DNA of 64,000 nt from contig JABDMW010000046.1 in the NCBI GenBank assembly GCA_013001295.1, positions 1-64,000 on the forward strand, given 5' to 3'. This document shows positions 7,677 to 43,672 of the stretch, in pieces; the stretch's first letter is position 1; every line of letters starts with the position of its first letter. The DNA is from Hyphomonadaceae bacterium. Lineage in GTDB: Bacteria; Pseudomonadota; Alphaproteobacteria; Caulobacterales; Maricaulaceae. The notes under the pieces were generated by a model that ran no database searches, was not told the DNA's origin, and saw only the letters and a program-made list of their open reading frames with translations. The translations under genes were made by a program, and so were the position numbers.

Positions 7677-8096
7677 TTAAACTTCCGATTCGTCTCCTGA
7701 CAATGAACGTGCTAATTCAAGAATTTGTCTGCGGACAGCTTTGTTCTCGATTTTGGACACAGCCATTGCCAAAGAAACACCATCCGAACTGTTGATAAAT
7801 TCCTGAACAATGGGGGTGTTGTCGCCTTCCGCATAATCCGTTGTAGGAGCGGAATGATCCAGCCCTTCATAGAAAAAGGCAACAGGCACATCCAGAACCT
7901 GAGACATTTTCCATAAACGACTGGCGCCGACCCGATTGGCGCCGCGTTCATATTTTTGGACTTGCTGAAAGGTTACGCCAAGCGCGTCGCCAAGCTTTTC
8001 CTGACTCATTTTCAGGAGTTGTCGCCGCAAACGGATTCGCGTTCCCACATGGATATCGACCGGGTTCGGAGACCGCGGTGCATGTTGTGATTTCAT
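7677..8096 (-). CDS. XRE-family helix-turn-helix regulator
   Basis: DNA-binding regulator of 139 residues. Residues about 15-70 are a lambda-repressor-like HTH: VGTRIRLRRQLLKMSQEKLG, then a recognition helix in TFQQVQKYERGANRVGASRL, followed by the alphaproteobacterial VPVAFFYEGL segment. The C-terminal 60 residues are helical and end LARSLSGDESEV. This type is conserved between lnt and metK/trmB in many alphaproteobacteria, but I know of no firmly assigned target. It may control the neighbouring lnt or metK-type genes. No membrane or ligand domain is seen. Confidence 0.88.
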   Translation of the reverse strand: MKSQHAPRSPNPVDIHVGTRIRLRRQLLKMSQEKLGDALGVTFQQVQKYERGANRVGASRLWKMSQVLDVPVAFFYEGLDHSAPTTDYAEGDNTPIVQEFINSSDGVSLAMAVSKIENKAVRRQILELARSLSGDESEV

Positions 8097-37752: not shown

Positions 37753-39468
37753 TTAAGCTTTCTTTGTGCGGCGGGATACGTTGTGCATCGGTAGCCTTAG
37801 CCGGAATTGCGCTCCTAATATCGTGCCATTTTCGTCCCGGCGGTTGTATGCCGTAATCGTACCGTGATGTGCATTCATGATCTGCCGGCTGATCGCCAAT
37901 CCAAGCCCTGAGTGATTGCCGAATGCCGCGCCCTTGGGGCGGTTGGTATAAAAACGTGTAAAAATTGATTCCAGATCGTCCTCAGGAATGCCGGGGCCAT
38001 CGTCGTCAACCGTGATAATAGCAAATCCCTGATCGTCACCGGCTCCGCGTTTAGTGCTGATCCGGACGCTCCGCTCGCCTTCTTTGGGAGAAAAAGTCAG
38101 AGCGTTGTCGATGAGGTTTCTGAGGACCTGCCCGAACGATGTCTCAAGTGCCCGGACGATCACAGTGCCCTTTTCACCGTCGCCGCTTTCGGAGGTCTTG
38201 CGTTTGACATGAACAACTGACACGCCGGTTTCAACGCGGGTTTGCGTATAGAAGTCAGCCATGTCCGAGAGGAATTTATCAACGTCCAAAGGCTCTGACG
38301 GTTCTTTGGCCAAAGCCGCGTCCATACGTGACGCTTTAGAAATATCGGTGATCAATCGATCCATTCGCTCAACATCTTGTTGAATAATATCGACGAGCTT
38401 GCCACGTTGTTCGTCCGTCTTGGCTATTCGCAATGTGTCAGTTGCTGAGCGTAATGACGTCAGAGGGTTTTTGATCTCATGGGCGACATCTGCCGCAAAA
38501 TTAGCAATATCATCAATGCGGTTATAGAGACCGGCGGTCATGTCTCGCAGCACCAGAGAAAGATCGCCAATTTCATCGCTGCGCGATGAAAGGTCGGGAA
38601 TGACGTCTCGTTTATCAGAAGACCGCCGAACCTGTTCGGCCGCGCGCGCCAAGCGCCGGATCGGTAAAGCTATAAATAATGTCAACGCTAATGATGATAG
38701 GATCGCCGCCATAATTGCGATTAAGATGATAGGCGTTAGGCCACGTCGTTGACTGGCCAGAATTGTATCAACATCACTTGTTTCGAAAACAACCGCGCCC
38801 AATACGTCCTGCACCCGTTTCACGGGAATTGCGACCGACACGATCAGGTTATCGCCTTCATATTGTTCGCCTGCAACTGTATCCCCCAAAAGTGCAGTTT
38901 TGATATCGCGTGTGAGTCGACGTTGTTTGCCTTCGCGGTGACGTTTGAAAACCGGAAGATCATTGACACGACTGTCGGTCCAGTTTTGCAATTGAACCCA
39001 CCATTCCTCTTTTGGTTCCACCGGGGTCTCATCCGTGATTATTGGATCAAGTGTGCCAACTTCAACACTATCATCGAGCAATTCGCTGTCAGCAATCAGT
39101 GAAGAGTTTTTATCATACAAACGAATGCGGGCTTTCTCAGGGACATCAATGCGCCGCATGATCCGCAAAGCCGCTTCTTCATCTAGGATTGCGGTCGATC
39201 CTAATCCGCTGGCCTGATCGCCAAGTAGGTTGGTTATGAGGCGGGCTTGAGAACTGAGATTGTCGATTTTTGCATCGATGAGCCCGCGTGAGAATTGGTT
39301 AAGTGTCAACGCGCCAATAATCAGAATTATCAATCCAAATAAATTGGCAAGAAAAATCATCCGCGTCAGCGTTGAAAAAGCAATAAACCGGCGTGCGCCT
39401 TTACGCCGATCCCCCCCTATTCGGAAGAACGGTTCGCCAGTTTTGGTTTTTTTAACTCCCGTCGTCAT
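37753..39468 (-). CDS. chvG: Sensor histidine kinase ChvG
   Basis: About 571 residues. Two membrane helices (about 35-57 and 265-285) flank a periplasmic sensor domain; a HAMP and a DHp with DVAHEIKNPLTSLRS (His about 327) and an ATPase domain (NLIDNALTFSP, DDDGPGIP, NHSGLGLAIS) follow. With ChvI it senses envelope stress or acid in rhizobia and Caulobacter. ATG at 39468 gives MTTGVKKTKTGEP; the frame opens at 39504. The usual downstream hprK is absent. It converges on the ABA4-like gene with four bases between stops. Confidence 0.92.
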   Translation of the reverse strand: MTTGVKKTKTGEPFFRIGGDRRKGARRFIAFSTLTRMIFLANLFGLIILIIGALTLNQFSRGLIDAKIDNLSSQARLITNLLGDQASGLGSTAILDEEAALRIMRRIDVPEKARIRLYDKNSSLIADSELLDDSVEVGTLDPIITDETPVEPKEEWWVQLQNWTDSRVNDLPVFKRHREGKQRRLTRDIKTALLGDTVAGEQYEGDNLIVSVAIPVKRVQDVLGAVVFETSDVDTILASQRRGLTPIILIAIMAAILSSLALTLFIALPIRRLARAAEQVRRSSDKRDVIPDLSSRSDEIGDLSLVLRDMTAGLYNRIDDIANFAADVAHEIKNPLTSLRSATDTLRIAKTDEQRGKLVDIIQQDVERMDRLITDISKASRMDAALAKEPSEPLDVDKFLSDMADFYTQTRVETGVSVVHVKRKTSESGDGEKGTVIVRALETSFGQVLRNLIDNALTFSPKEGERSVRISTKRGAGDDQGFAIITVDDDGPGIPEDDLESIFTRFYTNRPKGAAFGNHSGLGLAISRQIMNAHHGTITAYNRRDENGTILGAQFRLRLPMHNVSRRTKKA

Positions 39469-39567
39469 TGGGCCCGCTCTTACACCAAAGGCGTATAGAT
39501 TCAATGAATGAGTCGTTTTTCTAAAAAATTAGGCACGCAATCGGAAACGATTAAATTCGTATGGAAT

Positions 39568-40272
39568 TTAAGCTTCTTTATATTTGTAACCAACACCATA
39601 GAGCGTTTCAATACCATCGAATTCCCGATCGGTTTTTCGAAACTTTTTACGCAACCGCTTGATATGAGAATCGATCGTGCGGTCATCGACATAGACTTGA
39701 TCGTCGTAAGCGGCATCCATTAAATTATCGCGACTTTTCACATAGCCCGGACGGTATGCCAGCGCATGCAAAATCAAGAACTCTGTCACCGTCAAACGGA
39801 CAGGCTCGCCCTTCCAAGAACAAGCATGCCGGTTGGGGTCGAGCAAGAGCTGCCCCCGGCGAATAACCTTATCATCACCTTCTTGCGGCGTCGGTGTTTC
39901 TACGCTGCCCATCTTTGAACGGCGCAGAACCGCTTTGATCCGCTCGCCCAAAAGCCGTTGAGAAAAAGGTTTGGTGATGTAATCATCCGCGCCCATATTC
40001 AGGCCAATCGCCTCATCAAATTCATCATCTTTTGATGTCAGAAAAATCACGGGCAAGTTCGAGCTCTGGCGCAGACGGCGCAGCAGCTCAAGCCCATCCA
40101 TTCGAGGCATTTTAATGTCAAAAATAGCCAGATCTACGGGCTCATTTGTAAGGGCCTCGAGAGCGCTGACACCATCATTAAAGGTCTGGACGTCATACCC
40201 TGCATCTTCCAGATACATGGAAACCGATGTCAGGATGTTTTCGTCATCATCCACCAATGCAATCCGCGCCAT
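39568..40272 (-). CDS. chvI: Response regulator ChvI
   Basis: 234-residue OmpR-family regulator paired with ChvG. The receiver has [15 protein letters not shown] (phospho-Asp about 52) and DDYITKPFS; the winged-helix part has [30 protein letters not shown] and [15 protein letters not shown], identical in style to ChvI. ATG at 40272 has GGAG six bases upstream; the open frame to 40326 is not supported. chvG follows after about 100 bp. Confidence 0.93.
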
Positions 40273-40434
40273 TTTACTCTCCGTTTTCCACAGTCTTTGG
40301 GTTTGGATTCCCATGTCAGCCTCCATTTATCCTAAAGGGCGAATTCCCCGTCTTCAAGCTATGGTGTTGATTTAAAATACAAATAGGGCGTGGATTTGAC
40401 AGGCTTTGCCTTAGTTTCGCCATCAGAATTTAAA

Positions 40435-40448
40435 ACTAATTCTTTAGT
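40435..40448. promoter_or_regulatory. Operator dyad 1 of the blaI-like gene
   Basis: ACTAA-TTCT-TTAGT, extendable by one base pair on each side, abuts the -35 element. An almost identical dyad is at 40490-40503. Confidence 0.65.
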
Positions 40449-40476
40449 TGACTTCGAAAACTGGCCATTCTATATC
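40448..40476 (+). promoter_or_regulatory. Promoter of the blaI-M56 operon
   Basis: TTGACT (40448-40453), 17-base spacer, TATATC (40471-40476). The predicted start site is near 40483, between the two dyads. Confidence 0.6.
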
Positions 40477-40489
40477 TTGTTTGAACTCT

Positions 40490-40503
40490 ACTAAGGAATT
40501 AGT
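40490..40503. promoter_or_regulatory. Operator dyad 2 overlapping the blaI ribosome-binding site
   Basis: ACTAA-GGAA-TTAGT contains the AAGGA ribosome-binding site and ends three bases before the ATG at 40506. It is 55 bp from dyad 1. Repressor bound here would block early transcription, and the mRNA dyad might also mask the ribosome site. Confidence 0.65.
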
Positions 40504-40505
40504 TT

Positions 40506-40886
40506 ATGGCACGCCCAAAATCCAAAACCCTCACCCTTGCTGAACAACGTATCATGAATGTTCTGTGGAGTAAGGGAGAGGCCAGTGTCCGGGAAATCAC
40601 TGAAGACCTAAGCAAAGATCATGATCTGGCTTATACCACCGTCCTGACAACAACACGCATCCTCGCCGATAAGGGCTATGTCGGCTTTCGCAAAAACGGC
40701 CGCACTCACATATATGCGCCGCTGATCAGTCGAAAAGCCGAGCGAACATCTGCTGTCTCCAACATGTTGCGAAATCTTTTCGATGGATCGCCGCGCGCCC
40801 TTGCCCAACACCTGATCGAGGAAGACAAGCTGACGCCGGAAGACATTCAAGCCTTGCGAAATCTGCTGGACGGAGACAAGTCATGA
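40506..40886 (+). CDS. BlaI/MecI/CopY-family repressor
   Basis: 126-residue winged-helix repressor. The N-terminal 75 residues match BlaI/MecI: LTLAEQRIMNVLWSKGEASVREITEDL and LAYTTVLTTTRILADKGYVGFRKNGRTHIYAPLISR; the C-terminal helices dimerise. BlaI/MecI are inactivated by proteolysis after signalling by a BlaR1-type M56 protease, and the next gene encodes one, overlapping by four bases. Twin dyads in its leader imply autoregulation. No beta-lactamase gene is in the window. Confidence 0.92.
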   Translation: MARPKSKTLTLAEQRIMNVLWSKGEASVREITEDLSKDHDLAYTTVLTTTRILADKGYVGFRKNGRTHIYAPLISRKAERTSAVSNMLRNLFDGSPRALAQHLIEEDKLTPEDIQALRNLLDGDKS

Positions 40887-42754
40887 ATATTGATACGGTC
40901 GTTCCCGCCCTCGGGGCCAATTTAATATGGCAGACGCTTTTGCTGGCAGGTGTTGTTGGGTTAGCCCTTCGCATCCTTCCCCGGTATGCAGTGGGTGCGC
41001 GTTATCAAATTTCGCTCGTTGCCTTATTGGGATCTGGCTTGTTGTTCGCCGCACCGTTTTTGCCCGACCTGACCCCGGATTTATCAATTGGCATTGCTCC
41101 CCAATCAGCACCTCAAGCCGTACAAATTACTGAAACACCGGTCACAGAGAATGCGGCCCGACCGATAGGAAGCTTCAACGTCAACCAGCCATCACCCTTT
41201 CCGTTGGGCACACTATTATTGACTGTCTGGATGATCGGCATAGCCGCCTCTCTCACACGATTAGGCTTGGCCGCAAAAACCTCGCTGACATGGGCCCGCC
41301 ATTCACAGAAAATCGAACTAACAAATCAAGCATTTCTTTCCAAGGAAATCGATCTTCGCCGTAGCGCATATGTGCCGACACCGCTTGTCCTGGGATTTTT
41401 TCGACCTGTTGTACTTGTCCCGCAAGACTTTGACTTGAATTTGAAAAACCCGGCAACCCGGGCTGTGCTGGAACATGAAATCGCCCATTTAATACGTCAA
41501 GACCTATGGACCAACTTTGTCCAGCGATTGATTTTAGCACTCCTGTGGTGGTGCGTCCCGCTATACTGGATTAATGCCCAGATTTGCATTGAGCGTGAGA
41601 AATTATGTGACGATATCGCGGCCAAAAAAGTCGGCGCGGGTCGGGTCCTAGCCGCCGCCCTCGTCGATCTCGTAGATCAACATCCAAAACATCAACCTTT
41701 GCTCGCGATCGGGCTTCACCCGCGCGCCCACAATTTAGCTGAACGCATTCACCGCCTTTGTAAGGAGCATCCCATGCCTAAACTCTCAAAACGTCTATTG
41801 ATAACAACATCAATCGCGGTTCCCGCCTTGGTTGGATCCTTGATCCTGGCGGCGCCGCGCGCCATTGCTCACTCCCCGACCCCTCCACATGCCTCCAGCC
41901 ATATGGATATGGAGGATATCTCGTCGCTTCAATACGCCCTGTTTAAAGCGACATCACTTGGACGCATAGATGAGGTTAGAGAAATGCTCGCCATGGGCAT
42001 CGATCCCGCCTTCCACATTCATGGCGACGGCAGTCCGCTTATTATCGCCGCCAAAATCGGCCATACGGAAATAGCTGATCTCTTACTCAATCACGGCGCC
42101 CAAATAAACCGGATGACGGCATCAGATGAAAGCCCTTTGATCAACGCTGTTAAAGCCAATAATTTAAATATGGTGGAATTATTGGTGCAGCGGGGGGCTG
42201 ACGTATCGCTGGGACAGGTTTCCAATCCCCGACATCGTCCTGAATGGCGCTCTCCGCTCAGTACAGCGCAAAAATACCGCCACACTCAAATTGCGCAATA
42301 CTTGCGAAACCATGGGGCTGTCGCCGATACCCGAAAAACGGCGCCACGTCGCATCGCGCCAGGTCCTATTGTCGAAGGGCGTCTGACATCCAAGTTTGGC
42401 GTGATCCGGAAAAACTTTGACAAGACGAAGCATACGGGCGTCGACATCGCTAATAAGGAAGGAACGCCGATCTTTGCCCCGGCCGACGGAACGATTATTG
42501 AAGTGACCGACACATATAAAGACAATGCTAAATGGGGTCACGTCGTCGTCTTAGAAACGCCGGGCGGTATAAAAACCATATTCGCTCACTTAAAAGATTC
42601 CCAGGTTTCGCAAGGAGATTTTGTTCGCCAAGGGACTCAAATTGCCCGCCTGGGCAATACCGGGAAATCGACAGGGCCACACGTCCATATTCAGACTCGT
42701 AAAAACGGCAAGCTTATCGACCCGTTAAAAGCTTGGCCGACGTTGGCGCGCTAA
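40883..42754 (+). CDS. M56 membrane protease-ankyrin-M23 (LytM) fusion protein
   Basis: 623 residues. Residues 1-300 form a BlaR1-type M56 domain: helices near 12-30, 42-60 and 106-125, zinc motif HEIAH (198-202), then helices near 212-230. The last membrane segment is about 303-325. Residues 347-475 contain about four ankyrin repeats (SPLIIAAKIGHTEIADLLLNHGA is the clearest). Residues about 490-620 are an M23/LytM endopeptidase domain, with H517 and D521 in HTGVD and HVH at 600-602, all metal-binding residues present. In BlaR1 the periplasmic part is a penicillin sensor; here ankyrin and LytM replace it. It could bind or cut peptidoglycan and signal to BlaI through the M56 site (inference). 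Confidence 0.88.
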   Translation: MNIDTVVPALGANLIWQTLLLAGVVGLALRILPRYAVGARYQISLVALLGSGLLFAAPFLPDLTPDLSIGIAPQSAPQAVQITETPVTENAARPIGSFNVNQPSPFPLGTLLLTVWMIGIAASLTRLGLAAKTSLTWARHSQKIELTNQAFLSKEIDLRRSAYVPTPLVLGFFRPVVLVPQDFDLNLKNPATRAVLEHEIAHLIRQDLWTNFVQRLILALLWWCVPLYWINAQICIEREKLCDDIAAKKVGAGRVLAAALVDLVDQHPKHQPLLAIGLHPRAHNLAERIHRLCKEHPMPKLSKRLLITTSIAVPALVGSLILAAPRAIAHSPTPPHASSHMDMEDISSLQYALFKATSLGRIDEVREMLAMGIDPAFHIHGDGSPLIIAAKIGHTEIADLLLNHGAQINRMTASDESPLINAVKANNLNMVELLVQRGADVSLGQVSNPRHRPEWRSPLSTAQKYRHTQIAQYLRNHGAVADTRKTAPRRIAPGPIVEGRLTSKFGVIRKNFDKTKHTGVDIANKEGTPIFAPADGTIIEVTDTYKDNAKWGHVVVLETPGGIKTIFAHLKDSQVSQGDFVRQGTQIARLGNTGKSTGPHVHIQTRKNGKLIDPLKAWPTLAR

Positions 42755-42765
42755 TCACGCGCCAA
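42743..42765. terminator. Stem-loop at convergent stop codons
   Basis: TTGGCGCG (42743-42750) and CGCGCCAA (42758-42765) form a perfect eight-base-pair stem. The seven-base loop holds the stop codons of both convergent genes (TAA plus strand, TAG minus strand). There is no U-tract, so it is either a 3' stabilising hairpin or an imperfect bidirectional terminator. Confidence 0.5.
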
Positions 42766-43119
42766 AAGCCTTGCGACCTGTAATTCCAGCCGTTTGGTTT
42801 CGCGAAGCGAACGGTTGGTTTCCATGCGCATCCAGCTCCATATTTTGATCATCATATTGGCTTGAAGTAAGGCCCAGGCCAAGGCCGCCCAACGCAACAT
42901 GGATTGAATGTCATCAGCAATGATAAACTGCCATGCTGCGTAGAATCCGGTGAACGCCGCGATCGTACCAAAGATAATCGTTACAACACCAAGCCAAGCG
43001 AGCTTCCCTTTAAACAATCCACCGAGTTGCGCGAACAAGCCCTGCTCTTCCAGATCCGCCAACATATCCACGGTTTCGGCATCCAGCGCTTCCTTAATTT
43101 TTTGATCAAAGTCAGACAT
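42751..43119 (-). CDS. DUF6768-type two-helix membrane protein
   Basis: 122 residues: an acidic helical N-terminus (MSDFDQKIKEALDAETVDML), two membrane helices (about 42-64 and 70-92) and a basic C-terminal helix. It matches the small proteins annotated as DUF6768. It begins inside the ECF sigma gene (eight-base overlap), so the two are co-translated; a role as membrane-bound anti-sigma factor is possible but unproven, since it has no zinc-binding ZAS motif. Confidence 0.75.
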   Translation of the reverse strand: MSDFDQKIKEALDAETVDMLADLEEQGLFAQLGGLFKGKLAWLGVVTIIFGTIAAFTGFYAAWQFIIADDIQSMLRWAALAWALLQANMMIKIWSWMRMETNRSLRETKRLELQVARLLARD

Positions 43120-43672
43120 TGCTTTCTCCTTTTAATTGAGCACGAACTTTTTTTCGCGCGTGTAACAGTCGCGTTTTTACGGTGCCGACCGGCACACCTG
43201 TAGTATGGGCGATCTCAGAAACGCTGAGCTCATCCGAGTAATAAAGGATCATCGCTAAGCGTTGCTCTTGCGGCAGTTCCGAAATGATCGCCAAAACGAC
43301 ATTATGATCAGCATTTTTTTCGGCCCGGTCACCGCTTGTTGTATTGATCCGGGGTTCGGCTTCATATGCAGAATTTGTTTTGCGGCGACGCTGCACTTTC
43401 CTGATCTGATCAAAGCATCGCCGCGATACGATCTTATACGCCCAGGCATTAAACAAGCGCGAGTCGGACAAGCTACTGAAACCGCGAACAATATCGGCCC
43501 AGGCATCTTGAACAGCATCGCGGGCCATCTCACCCTCACCCGTCATGCGCATGGCAAAGGCGAGCAGGCGTTTTTCATAGTGTTCAGCCAATAAATTAAA
43601 CGCAGCTCGGTCGCCGGTTTTTGCGCGCAAAACCAGATATTCAGTATATTTTCTGTCCAGCTGCTTTTGCAT
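43112..43672 (-). CDS. ECF-type RNA polymerase sigma factor
   Basis: 186-residue sigma factor with region 2 (AFRLxxxxYRxxLLAFAMRMTGEGEMARDAVQDAWADI-type sequence, about 22-75) and region 4 (LPQEQRLAMILYYSDELSVSEIAHTTGVPVGTVKTRLLHARKKV, about 130-175). No C-terminal extension. The partner gene downstream is the DUF6768 membrane protein. The upstream region (43673-43823) is shared with glpD and holds a dyad at 43728-43756. Confidence 0.9.
   Translation of the reverse strand: MQKQLDRKYTEYLVLRAKTGDRAAFNLLAEHYEKRLLAFAMRMTGEGEMARDAVQDAWADIVRGFSSLSDSRLFNAWAYKIVSRRCFDQIRKVQRRRKTNSAYEAEPRINTTSGDRAEKNADHNVVLAIISELPQEQRLAMILYYSDELSVSEIAHTTGVPVGTVKTRLLHARKKVRAQLKGESNV

What the first reader, a model, noticed from the sequence alone, without database searches (positions are those of the whole stretch)
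40883..42754. M56 protease fused to ankyrin repeats and a complete LytM/M23 domain
Seen: HEIAH (198-202), a last membrane segment near 303-325, ankyrin repeats 347-475, and M23 metal ligands H517, D521 and HVH 600-602, in one 623-residue frame. Known: BlaR1 has an M56 domain plus a periplasmic penicillin sensor and induces loss of BlaI. Inference: this is a BlaR1-like receptor whose sensor binds or cuts peptidoglycan, so BlaI would respond to wall state and not to an antibiotic. I recall public protein names pairing M23 with M56, so the novelty lies mainly in the ankyrin insert and the operon logic.
Basis: partly seen in the sequence, partly recalled or inferred. Interest (0 to 1): 0.75.

Follow-up and report, generated by a model that had tools for sequence, protein, structure and literature searches.

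The report
Wall-cutting enzyme built into BlaR1-like receptor
A marine bacterium carries a membrane receptor of the kind that other bacteria use to detect penicillin, but its outer part is an ankyrin-repeat arm plus a predicted cell-wall-cutting enzyme, so sensing and response may sit in one protein.

Summary
ORF 40883-42754 is one intact 623-aa frame: a BlaR1-type M56 protease, ankyrin repeats, and an M23/LytM domain with its metal ligands. It overlaps a BlaI-type repressor gene by 4 nt. The full M56-Ank-M23 build was found only in Robiginitomaculum (4 of 14 genomes; 3 more have M56-M23); M56-Ank without M23 is common in the order. Two palindromic operators at the blaI promoter are conserved across related genera. 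The window's genome has three exact operator cores, two of them at blaI. In relatives without M23 the operon often continues with a secreted PF00144 serine hydrolase (11 of 16 loci). In one genome where that gene lies elsewhere, all three exact operator cores stand before PF00144 genes. No such gene follows the M23-bearing receptors (0 of 7). I therefore read the M23 domain as a hydrolase fused in cis in place of a separate output enzyme, more likely than as a new sensor. Whether it cuts peptidoglycan, and what is sensed, is untested. M56 with M23 is in print; my searches found no paper on M56 with ankyrin.

The parts
37753..39504 (-). ChvG-like sensor kinase (neighbour)
   Evidence: NCBIfam NF058527 ChvG 535.5 bits, best family but below its cut-off of 740
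39568..40326 (-). ChvI-like response regulator, divergent from blaI (start probably 40272)
   Evidence: Pfam Response_reg + Trans_reg_C; name ChvI from its ChvG neighbour and start from the relatives' sequences, by eye
40434..40449 (.). operator 1, AACTAATTCTTTAGTT; overlaps a -35-like TTGACT at 40448-40453
   Evidence: the only 0-mismatch copy listed for the 3.49 Mb genome; the -35 reading is by eye (the promoter scan, did not list it)
40489..40504 (.). operator 2, TACTAAGGAATTAGTT; contains the AAGGAA Shine-Dalgarno-like stretch
40506..40886 (+). blaI-like repressor gene, 126 aa
   Evidence: Pfam Penicillinase_R 110.7 bits; MecI/BlaI structures match by sequence
40883..42754 (+). M56-ankyrin-M23 receptor gene, 623 aa, ATGA overlap with blaI
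41474..41488 (+). HEIAH zinc motif of the M56 protease (res 198-202)
   Evidence: H198, E199, A201, H202 invariant in 10 aligned homologues
41591..41614 (+). EREKLCDD, second gluzincin motif (res 237-244)
41789..41857 (+). last transmembrane helix (about res 303-325)
41861..41869 (+). AIA of APRAIA-H, signal-peptidase-I-like site after TM4 (res 327-329)
   Evidence: by eye in the alignment; inference
41921..42322 (+). ankyrin repeats (res 347-480)
   Evidence: Pfam, model, DARPin/ankyrin fold matches
42428..42724 (+). M23/LytM domain (res 516-614); H517, D521, H569, H600, H602
   Evidence: Pfam 99.3 bits; residues invariant in 7 of 7 aligned; best fold match StM23 9gy1

Best explanation
A BlaI-repressor / M56-protease-receptor operon whose receptor carries its own output enzyme. 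Shown by sequence: BlaI-type repressor, two operators at its own promoter, an M56 protease predicted to face the cytoplasm, a predicted periplasmic ankyrin arm and an M23 domain with all its catalytic residues. Inferred: at rest BlaI keeps the operon low; a periplasmic signal acting on the ankyrin/M23 part (most simply a change in peptidoglycan or in M23 occupancy) moves the last TM helix and frees the M56 site; M56 cuts BlaI; the operon is derepressed and the periplasm gains more M23 endopeptidase, perhaps also shed by signal peptidase at the AxA site after TM4. In relatives without M23 the output is a separate secreted PF00144 serine hydrolase; here it appears to have been replaced by a hydrolase fused in cis. 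Rough confidences: repressor/receptor pair with self-repression 0.85; M23 as cis output 0.5; shedding 0.3.
For: Domains and fold. A BlaI-type frame on the same strand beside the M56 frame in 76 of 80 rows (52 of 56 distinct frames); the 4 misses (L021, L080, L084, L101) start at the end of the locus held. Operators: of 20 blaI upstream stretches scored, op1 in 19, op2 in 18, both in 18; mononucleotide shuffles give means 0.02, 0 and 0 per set (24 candidates, 4 dropped: L093, L102, L112 start not recognised, L101 no blaI held). Exact core ACTAANNNNTTAGT at blaI / all in the genome: G000 2/3, G001 2/2, G005 1/1, G007 1/1, G013 2/3, G022 1/1, G011 1/8, G008 0/1, G056 0/3. PF00144 gene (182.6 bits in L098) on the same strand after M56-Ank in 11 of 14 loci (11 of 16 with L041 and L043; L044 is cut), in 0 of 6 M23-bearing loci and not after the window's gene. 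In G056 the PF00144 orthologue (53% identity) lies about 680 kb from blaI, yet two exact cores stand before it, the nearer 31 bases from its ATG; the third exact core is 22 bases before another PF00144 frame. In 7 Robiginitomaculum genomes, 4 have a PF00144 hit at E up to 1e-20, 30-32% identical, none with a core (up to 1 mismatch) in the locus of 1.5 kb on each side. Trees: the 7 Robiginitomaculum M56 parts are one clade (100/99) beside 18 M56-Ank and 3 M56 rows (joint fork 97/91); their M23 domains are one clade (100/99).
Against: No biochemistry. The swap rests on one evolutionary change, so 0 of 7 against 11 of 16 is not a count of independent events. Five M56-Ank loci (L105, L107, L110, L041, L043) lack the PF00144 neighbour too. 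The two G056 operators also lie before a divergent AAA-ATPase-like gene (ATG at L165 1692), which could be a target. Operator searches were strict: weaker sites would be missed, and of 62 sites at up to 2 mismatches in G000 (control pattern 292) most were not examined. G008 has the M56-M23 gene but no operator at blaI. Over the whole M56 tree the M56-Ank label needs at least 4 changes on starred branches, so ankyrin has come or gone repeatedly, and the root is only a midpoint. An M23 domain held by a membrane receptor could equally be a detector.
Confidence: 0.5

Rival explanations
1. One reading: the M23 domain is the sensor. Binding or cutting peptidoglycan changes its state, that is passed through ankyrin and TM4 to the M56 protease, and BlaI then reports wall state to target genes.
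For: Its position matches the BlaR1 penicillin-sensing domain (PMC9834060, passages), which resembles class D beta-lactamases (PMC7593790, passages). Catalytic residues kept in 7 of 7. A ChvG-like pair lies beside the operon here and a ChvI-like gene in G005; in Caulobacter ChvGI is said to respond to peptidoglycan damage (PMC9731502, abstract). A peptidoglycan dipeptide can bind BlaI/MecI (PMC3305447, abstract).
Against: The same operon exists in relatives with no M23 domain. No separate target gene was found for BlaI in this genome with the strict searches. A hydrolase with all catalytic residues is more than a binder needs. The ChvGI neighbourhood is not kept in G007, G008, G011.
Confidence: 0.3
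2. The M56/BlaI half and the M23 half do unrelated jobs; the fusion merely ties a wall endopeptidase to the membrane at a BlaI-controlled dose.
For: M56-M23 fusions appear in separate places of the M56 tree (3 changes of that label), as if M23 were a frequent passenger.
Against: Repeated joining to the same receptor type, with BlaI adjacent, is more than expected of a passenger; in this genus a single clade with conserved catalytic residues.
Confidence: 0.12
3. A beta-lactam receptor in all but the sensor: it still induces resistance to cell-wall antibiotics.
For: The output gene of the relatives is PF00144, the family of class C beta-lactamases, DD-peptidases and esterases.
Against: No penicillin-binding domain in the protein; the PF00144 protein L098 scores far below the cut-off of each class C model shown (best 67.1 against 415 bits, 25 of 45 families shown), and none follows this operon.
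Confidence: 0.05

Closest known systems
BlaR1/BlaI and MecR1/MecI (MEROPS M56)
   Same: Repressor gene next to the receptor gene; gluzincin motifs; predicted four TM helices, N-out/C-out; fold (BlaR1 top 6 hits); operators at own promoter
   Different: No penicillin-binding sensor; periplasmic part is ankyrin + M23; no separate output gene found in this genome
M23/M56 proteins
   Same: M56 followed by M23 in one protein; M23 with M56 is named among combinations that make up less than 1% of M23 entries in PMC9662197 (passages)
   Different: Ankyrin arm between them; the M56 part groups beside M56-Ank rows, not with the other M56-M23 proteins of the order
M56-ankyrin proteins of Maricaulis, Oceanicaulis, Hirschia and others
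   Same: M56 part, ankyrin signature, BlaI, operator pair
   Different: No M23; often followed by a PF00144 hydrolase gene
LytM/M23 endopeptidases (StM23 9gy1, DipM 7qrl)
   Same: Fold and metal ligands
   Different: Here part of a signalling protease

Membership tests
BlaR1-type M56 receptor | HExxH and ExxxD gluzincin motifs | tested here: met
   H198-H202 and E239...D243, invariant in 10 aligned homologues
BlaR1-type M56 receptor | Pfam M56 and BlaR1 fold | tested here: met
   73.9 bits, cut-off 31; BlaR1 entries are ranks 1-6, E 3e-6 to 8e-4, TMq 0.44-0.59, rmsd 14-18 over long alignments but 2.7 for 8exr_A; by sequence alone only E 0.17
BlaR1-type M56 receptor | Four TM helices, C-terminus outside | tested here: inconclusive
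   Hydropathy, charge and model agree; no experiment
BlaR1-type M56 receptor | Penicillin-binding sensor domain | tested here: not met
   No such Pfam match at E up to 1
BlaR1-type M56 receptor | Cleaves its BlaI partner | not testable with these tools
   Needs protein work; the P1' residue taken by offset is Leu103, not Phe (inference)
BlaI/MecI repressor | Penicillinase_R domain and palindromic operators at own promoter | tested here: met
   110.7 bits; operators; binding not tested
M23 peptidase | H(x)nD and HxH motifs and fold | tested here: met
   H517, D521, H600, H602; 9gy1 TMt 0.80
M23 peptidase | Cuts peptidoglycan | not testable with these tools
   Needs an enzyme assay
Ankyrin repeat | Repeats above Pfam cut-off and solenoid fold | tested here: met

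The most novel reading that the evidence does not exclude
A one-operon sense-and-respond device: the only strong BlaI target is the operon that encodes BlaI and the receptor, and the receptor itself holds the effector, a peptidoglycan endopeptidase that took the place of a separate secreted hydrolase; possible shedding by signal peptidase would release it as a free enzyme.
Probability: 0.35. Interest if true: 0.7.

Novelty: new variant of a known kind. Interest (0 to 1): 0.5.

Why it matters
BlaR1 is the textbook case of a protease receptor that reports an antibiotic to a repressor. A natural series, M56-ankyrin plus a separate hydrolase gene, then M56-ankyrin-M23, then M56-M23, would show how the sensing and output parts of such receptors are exchanged, and would give a testable system in which wall cutting and wall sensing may be in the same molecule. 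The conserved operator pair makes the regulon directly testable in cultured relatives such as Maricaulis maris.

Tried and rejected
Frameshift or assembly chimera: rejected, same build in G001, G005, G013. Chance operators: rejected for the blaI pair. Further operator targets in G000: C38:21782 (1 mismatch, upstream of a gspF-like gene, named by eye) is at chance level by my estimate (about 4 one-mismatch sites expected from the 62 sites at up to two mismatches); C46:16099 lies at the end of a gene. A shared target in G008 (C7) and G011 (C10): same 14-mer but different surroundings. P0001 against plasmids: 0 of 3493 matching records cover 80% of the query in one place; the 20 rows shown match one part each. 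First genome-contig scan with the single protein found nothing. Origin of the M23 domain among other M23 domains: unresolved. Class-wide search (385 genomes): only the window's genome at E up to 1e-40; like it scored at most 3 candidates in each genome listed, so it is not an exhaustive negative. Promoter scan listed no promoter at blaI. Literature: BlaR1+ankyrin 0 papers, M56+ankyrin+BlaR1 0 papers, M56 phrases with ankyrin: 2 papers held two terms, neither holds ankyrin; seen as listings, from which PMC9662197, PMC12864828, PMC9834060, PMC3305447, PMC7593790 and PMC9731502 were opened (passages or abstract with outline only). PMC12864828 was opened for 'BlaI' but the hits shown were the author name Blair. 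The library holds open-licence PMC papers only. Similar P1' residues in BlaI and in the autocleavage loop: seen but the alignment to BlaR1 is too weak to lean on.

Full report
What is there. The window holds, on the + strand, a 126-aa BlaI-type repressor gene (40506-40886) and, overlapping it by ATGA, a 623-aa gene (40883-42754). Pfam places M56 at residues 87-290, ankyrin at 354-442 and M23 at 516-614, all above cut-off. The zinc motifs HEIAH and EREKLCDD and H517, D521, H569, H600, H602 are present; these M23 positions are invariant in the seven aligned Robiginitomaculum proteins. A model from 23 sequences has mean pLDDT 83.0 and shows TM helices, gluzincin core, TM4, a low-confidence linker, four ankyrin helix pairs and an M23 fold. 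Fold searches: M23 and DARPin/ankyrin entries for the whole model (50 rows shown), BlaR1 as ranks 1-6 for residues 1-334 (TMq 0.44-0.59). By sequence alone BlaR1 is only E 0.17.

Topology. Loops 126-210 and 232-305 carry 11 and 13 Lys/Arg, loops 60-106 and 326-345 one each. This fits N-out/C-out as reported for BlaR1 (PMC9834060, passages), with the protease inside and Ank-M23 outside. TM4 is followed by AIA-H (TPRAFA or TPRALA in four close relatives, TPRIVA and TPRVVA in two), which resembles a signal-peptidase site; BlaR1 has a signal peptidase site at Gly331, after its last TM helix, according to the same passages. That the site is used here is inference.

Distribution. The genus is Robiginitomaculum by the titles of records that share contig lengths and sequence with G001, G005, G007, G008, G011 and G013. 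In the 14 genomes of the genus that are held, 7 have the gene: 4 as M56-Ank-M23 (G000, G001, G005, G013) and 3 as M56-M23 (G007, G008, G011). In 299 genomes of the order, 45 have a match to the 10-row alignment at E up to 1e-45 (at most 3 candidates scored in each genome listed). Among loci read, the M56 tree has 30 M56-Ank, 4 M56-Ank-M23, 10 M56-M23 and 7 M56 rows (after dropping near-copies, rows under 60 bits and short rows). The 7 Robiginitomaculum rows form one clade (100/99), joined (97/91) to a group of 18 M56-Ank and 3 M56 rows. The other 12 M56-Ank rows lie elsewhere, and the M56-Ank label needs 6 changes on the tree (at least 4 on starred branches), so ankyrin has come or gone more than once; the root is a midpoint. 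Within the joint group the simplest reading is that M56-Ank came first, M23 was added once in this genus, and ankyrin was lost in G007/G008/G011. The M23 tree leaves the donor open.

Operators. Two palindromes, ACTAANNNNTTAGT, sit about 67 and 16 bases before blaI; the first runs into TTGAC, the second holds the ribosome-binding stretch. Of 20 upstream stretches scored, 18 have both (misses L099, where the script's start point fell inside the gene, and L100, op1 only; 4 of 24 candidates dropped). The exact core occurs three times in G000, twice at blaI. In the same call it is at blaI in 2 of 2 sites in G001, 1 of 1 in G005, G007 and G022, 2 of 3 in G013, 1 of 8 in G011 (six are one repeated 14-mer), 0 of 1 in G008 and 0 of 3 in G056, whose blaI promoter has imperfect copies. 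At up to 2 mismatches of 12 there are 62 places in G000 against 292 for the reversed control, which I treat as mostly chance and did not examine singly. A combined promoter pattern, written to fit some of these promoters, occurs once in each of 5 of 8 genomes and in no control.

Output genes. In 11 of 14 M56-Ank loci fetched a same-strand PF00144-like gene follows the receptor; Pfam was run on two of these, L098 and L102. The genes carry SVSK, and L098 has a signal-peptide-like start, by eye. It is absent after L105, L107 and L110, and next to the receptor in L041 and L043 (11 of 16 in all; L044 is cut by the contig end); also after L108, L111 and L112, where no ankyrin was recognised. It is absent after the 6 M23-bearing receptors and after the window's gene. 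In G056 the orthologue lies at 1.40 Mb while blaI is at 0.72 Mb, and two exact cores stand before its start, the nearer 31 bases from the ATG; a divergent AAA-ATPase-like gene starts on the other side. The only other exact core in that genome stands 22 bases before another PF00144 frame. Of 7 Robiginitomaculum genomes searched, 4 have a PF00144 hit at E up to 1e-20, 30-32% identical, none with a core in the locus at up to one mismatch.

Reading. The ancestral module looks like repressor, ankyrin receptor and secreted hydrolase. In Robiginitomaculum a predicted wall endopeptidase fused to the receptor appears to stand in for the separate hydrolase. This makes output the likelier role of the M23 domain, but a sensor role is not excluded, and both could be true: an enzyme that acts on the wall is also in a position to report on it. 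The nearby ChvGI-like pair, described in Caulobacter as monitoring peptidoglycan damage (PMC9731502, abstract), is beside the operon in G000; a ChvI-like gene is beside it in G005 and two or three frames away in G001 and G013, by eye; it was not seen near it in G007, G008 or G011. A functional tie is only suggestive.

Known and new. M23 with M56 is already listed in a review (PMC9662197, passages). I found no paper on M56 with ankyrin in the open-licence library. Verdict: new variant of a known kind.

Noticed in passing
L001 (G000:C57) and L002 (G000:C18): The same genome has two more BlaI-M56 pairs; their C-terminal parts look like long charged or coiled stretches by eye.
   Followed up: partly
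L164 757-2055 (-) with operator core at G056:C1:824577: A second PF00144 gene in G056 has an exact BlaI operator core 22 bases before its frame.
   Followed up: partly
L111 7934-9190: In one Ponticaulis record the M56 receptor has no recognised ankyrin and is followed by a carboxylesterase-like gene (read by eye).
   Followed up: no
L016-L022, L028, L030, L153, L159, L161: Other M56-M23 fusions occur in other genera of the order; in the L016-L030 set a BlaI-type frame is adjacent except in L021, which is cut.
   Followed up: partly
L038 (G008), near 8080: BlaI lacks the usual MARP start and the operator pair; the locus may be rearranged or misassembled.
   Followed up: no
G011, contigs C25, C31, C37, C38, C46: ACTAATATATTAGT recurs six times in G011, as if part of a dispersed repeat.
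   Followed up: no
L112 3684-4972: In this Maricaulis record the M56 gene is split over two frames, so its ankyrin state is unknown.
   Followed up: no
window 42751-43672 (-): A small membrane protein and an ECF-type sigma factor gene, convergent with the receptor gene (identified by eye only).
   Followed up: no
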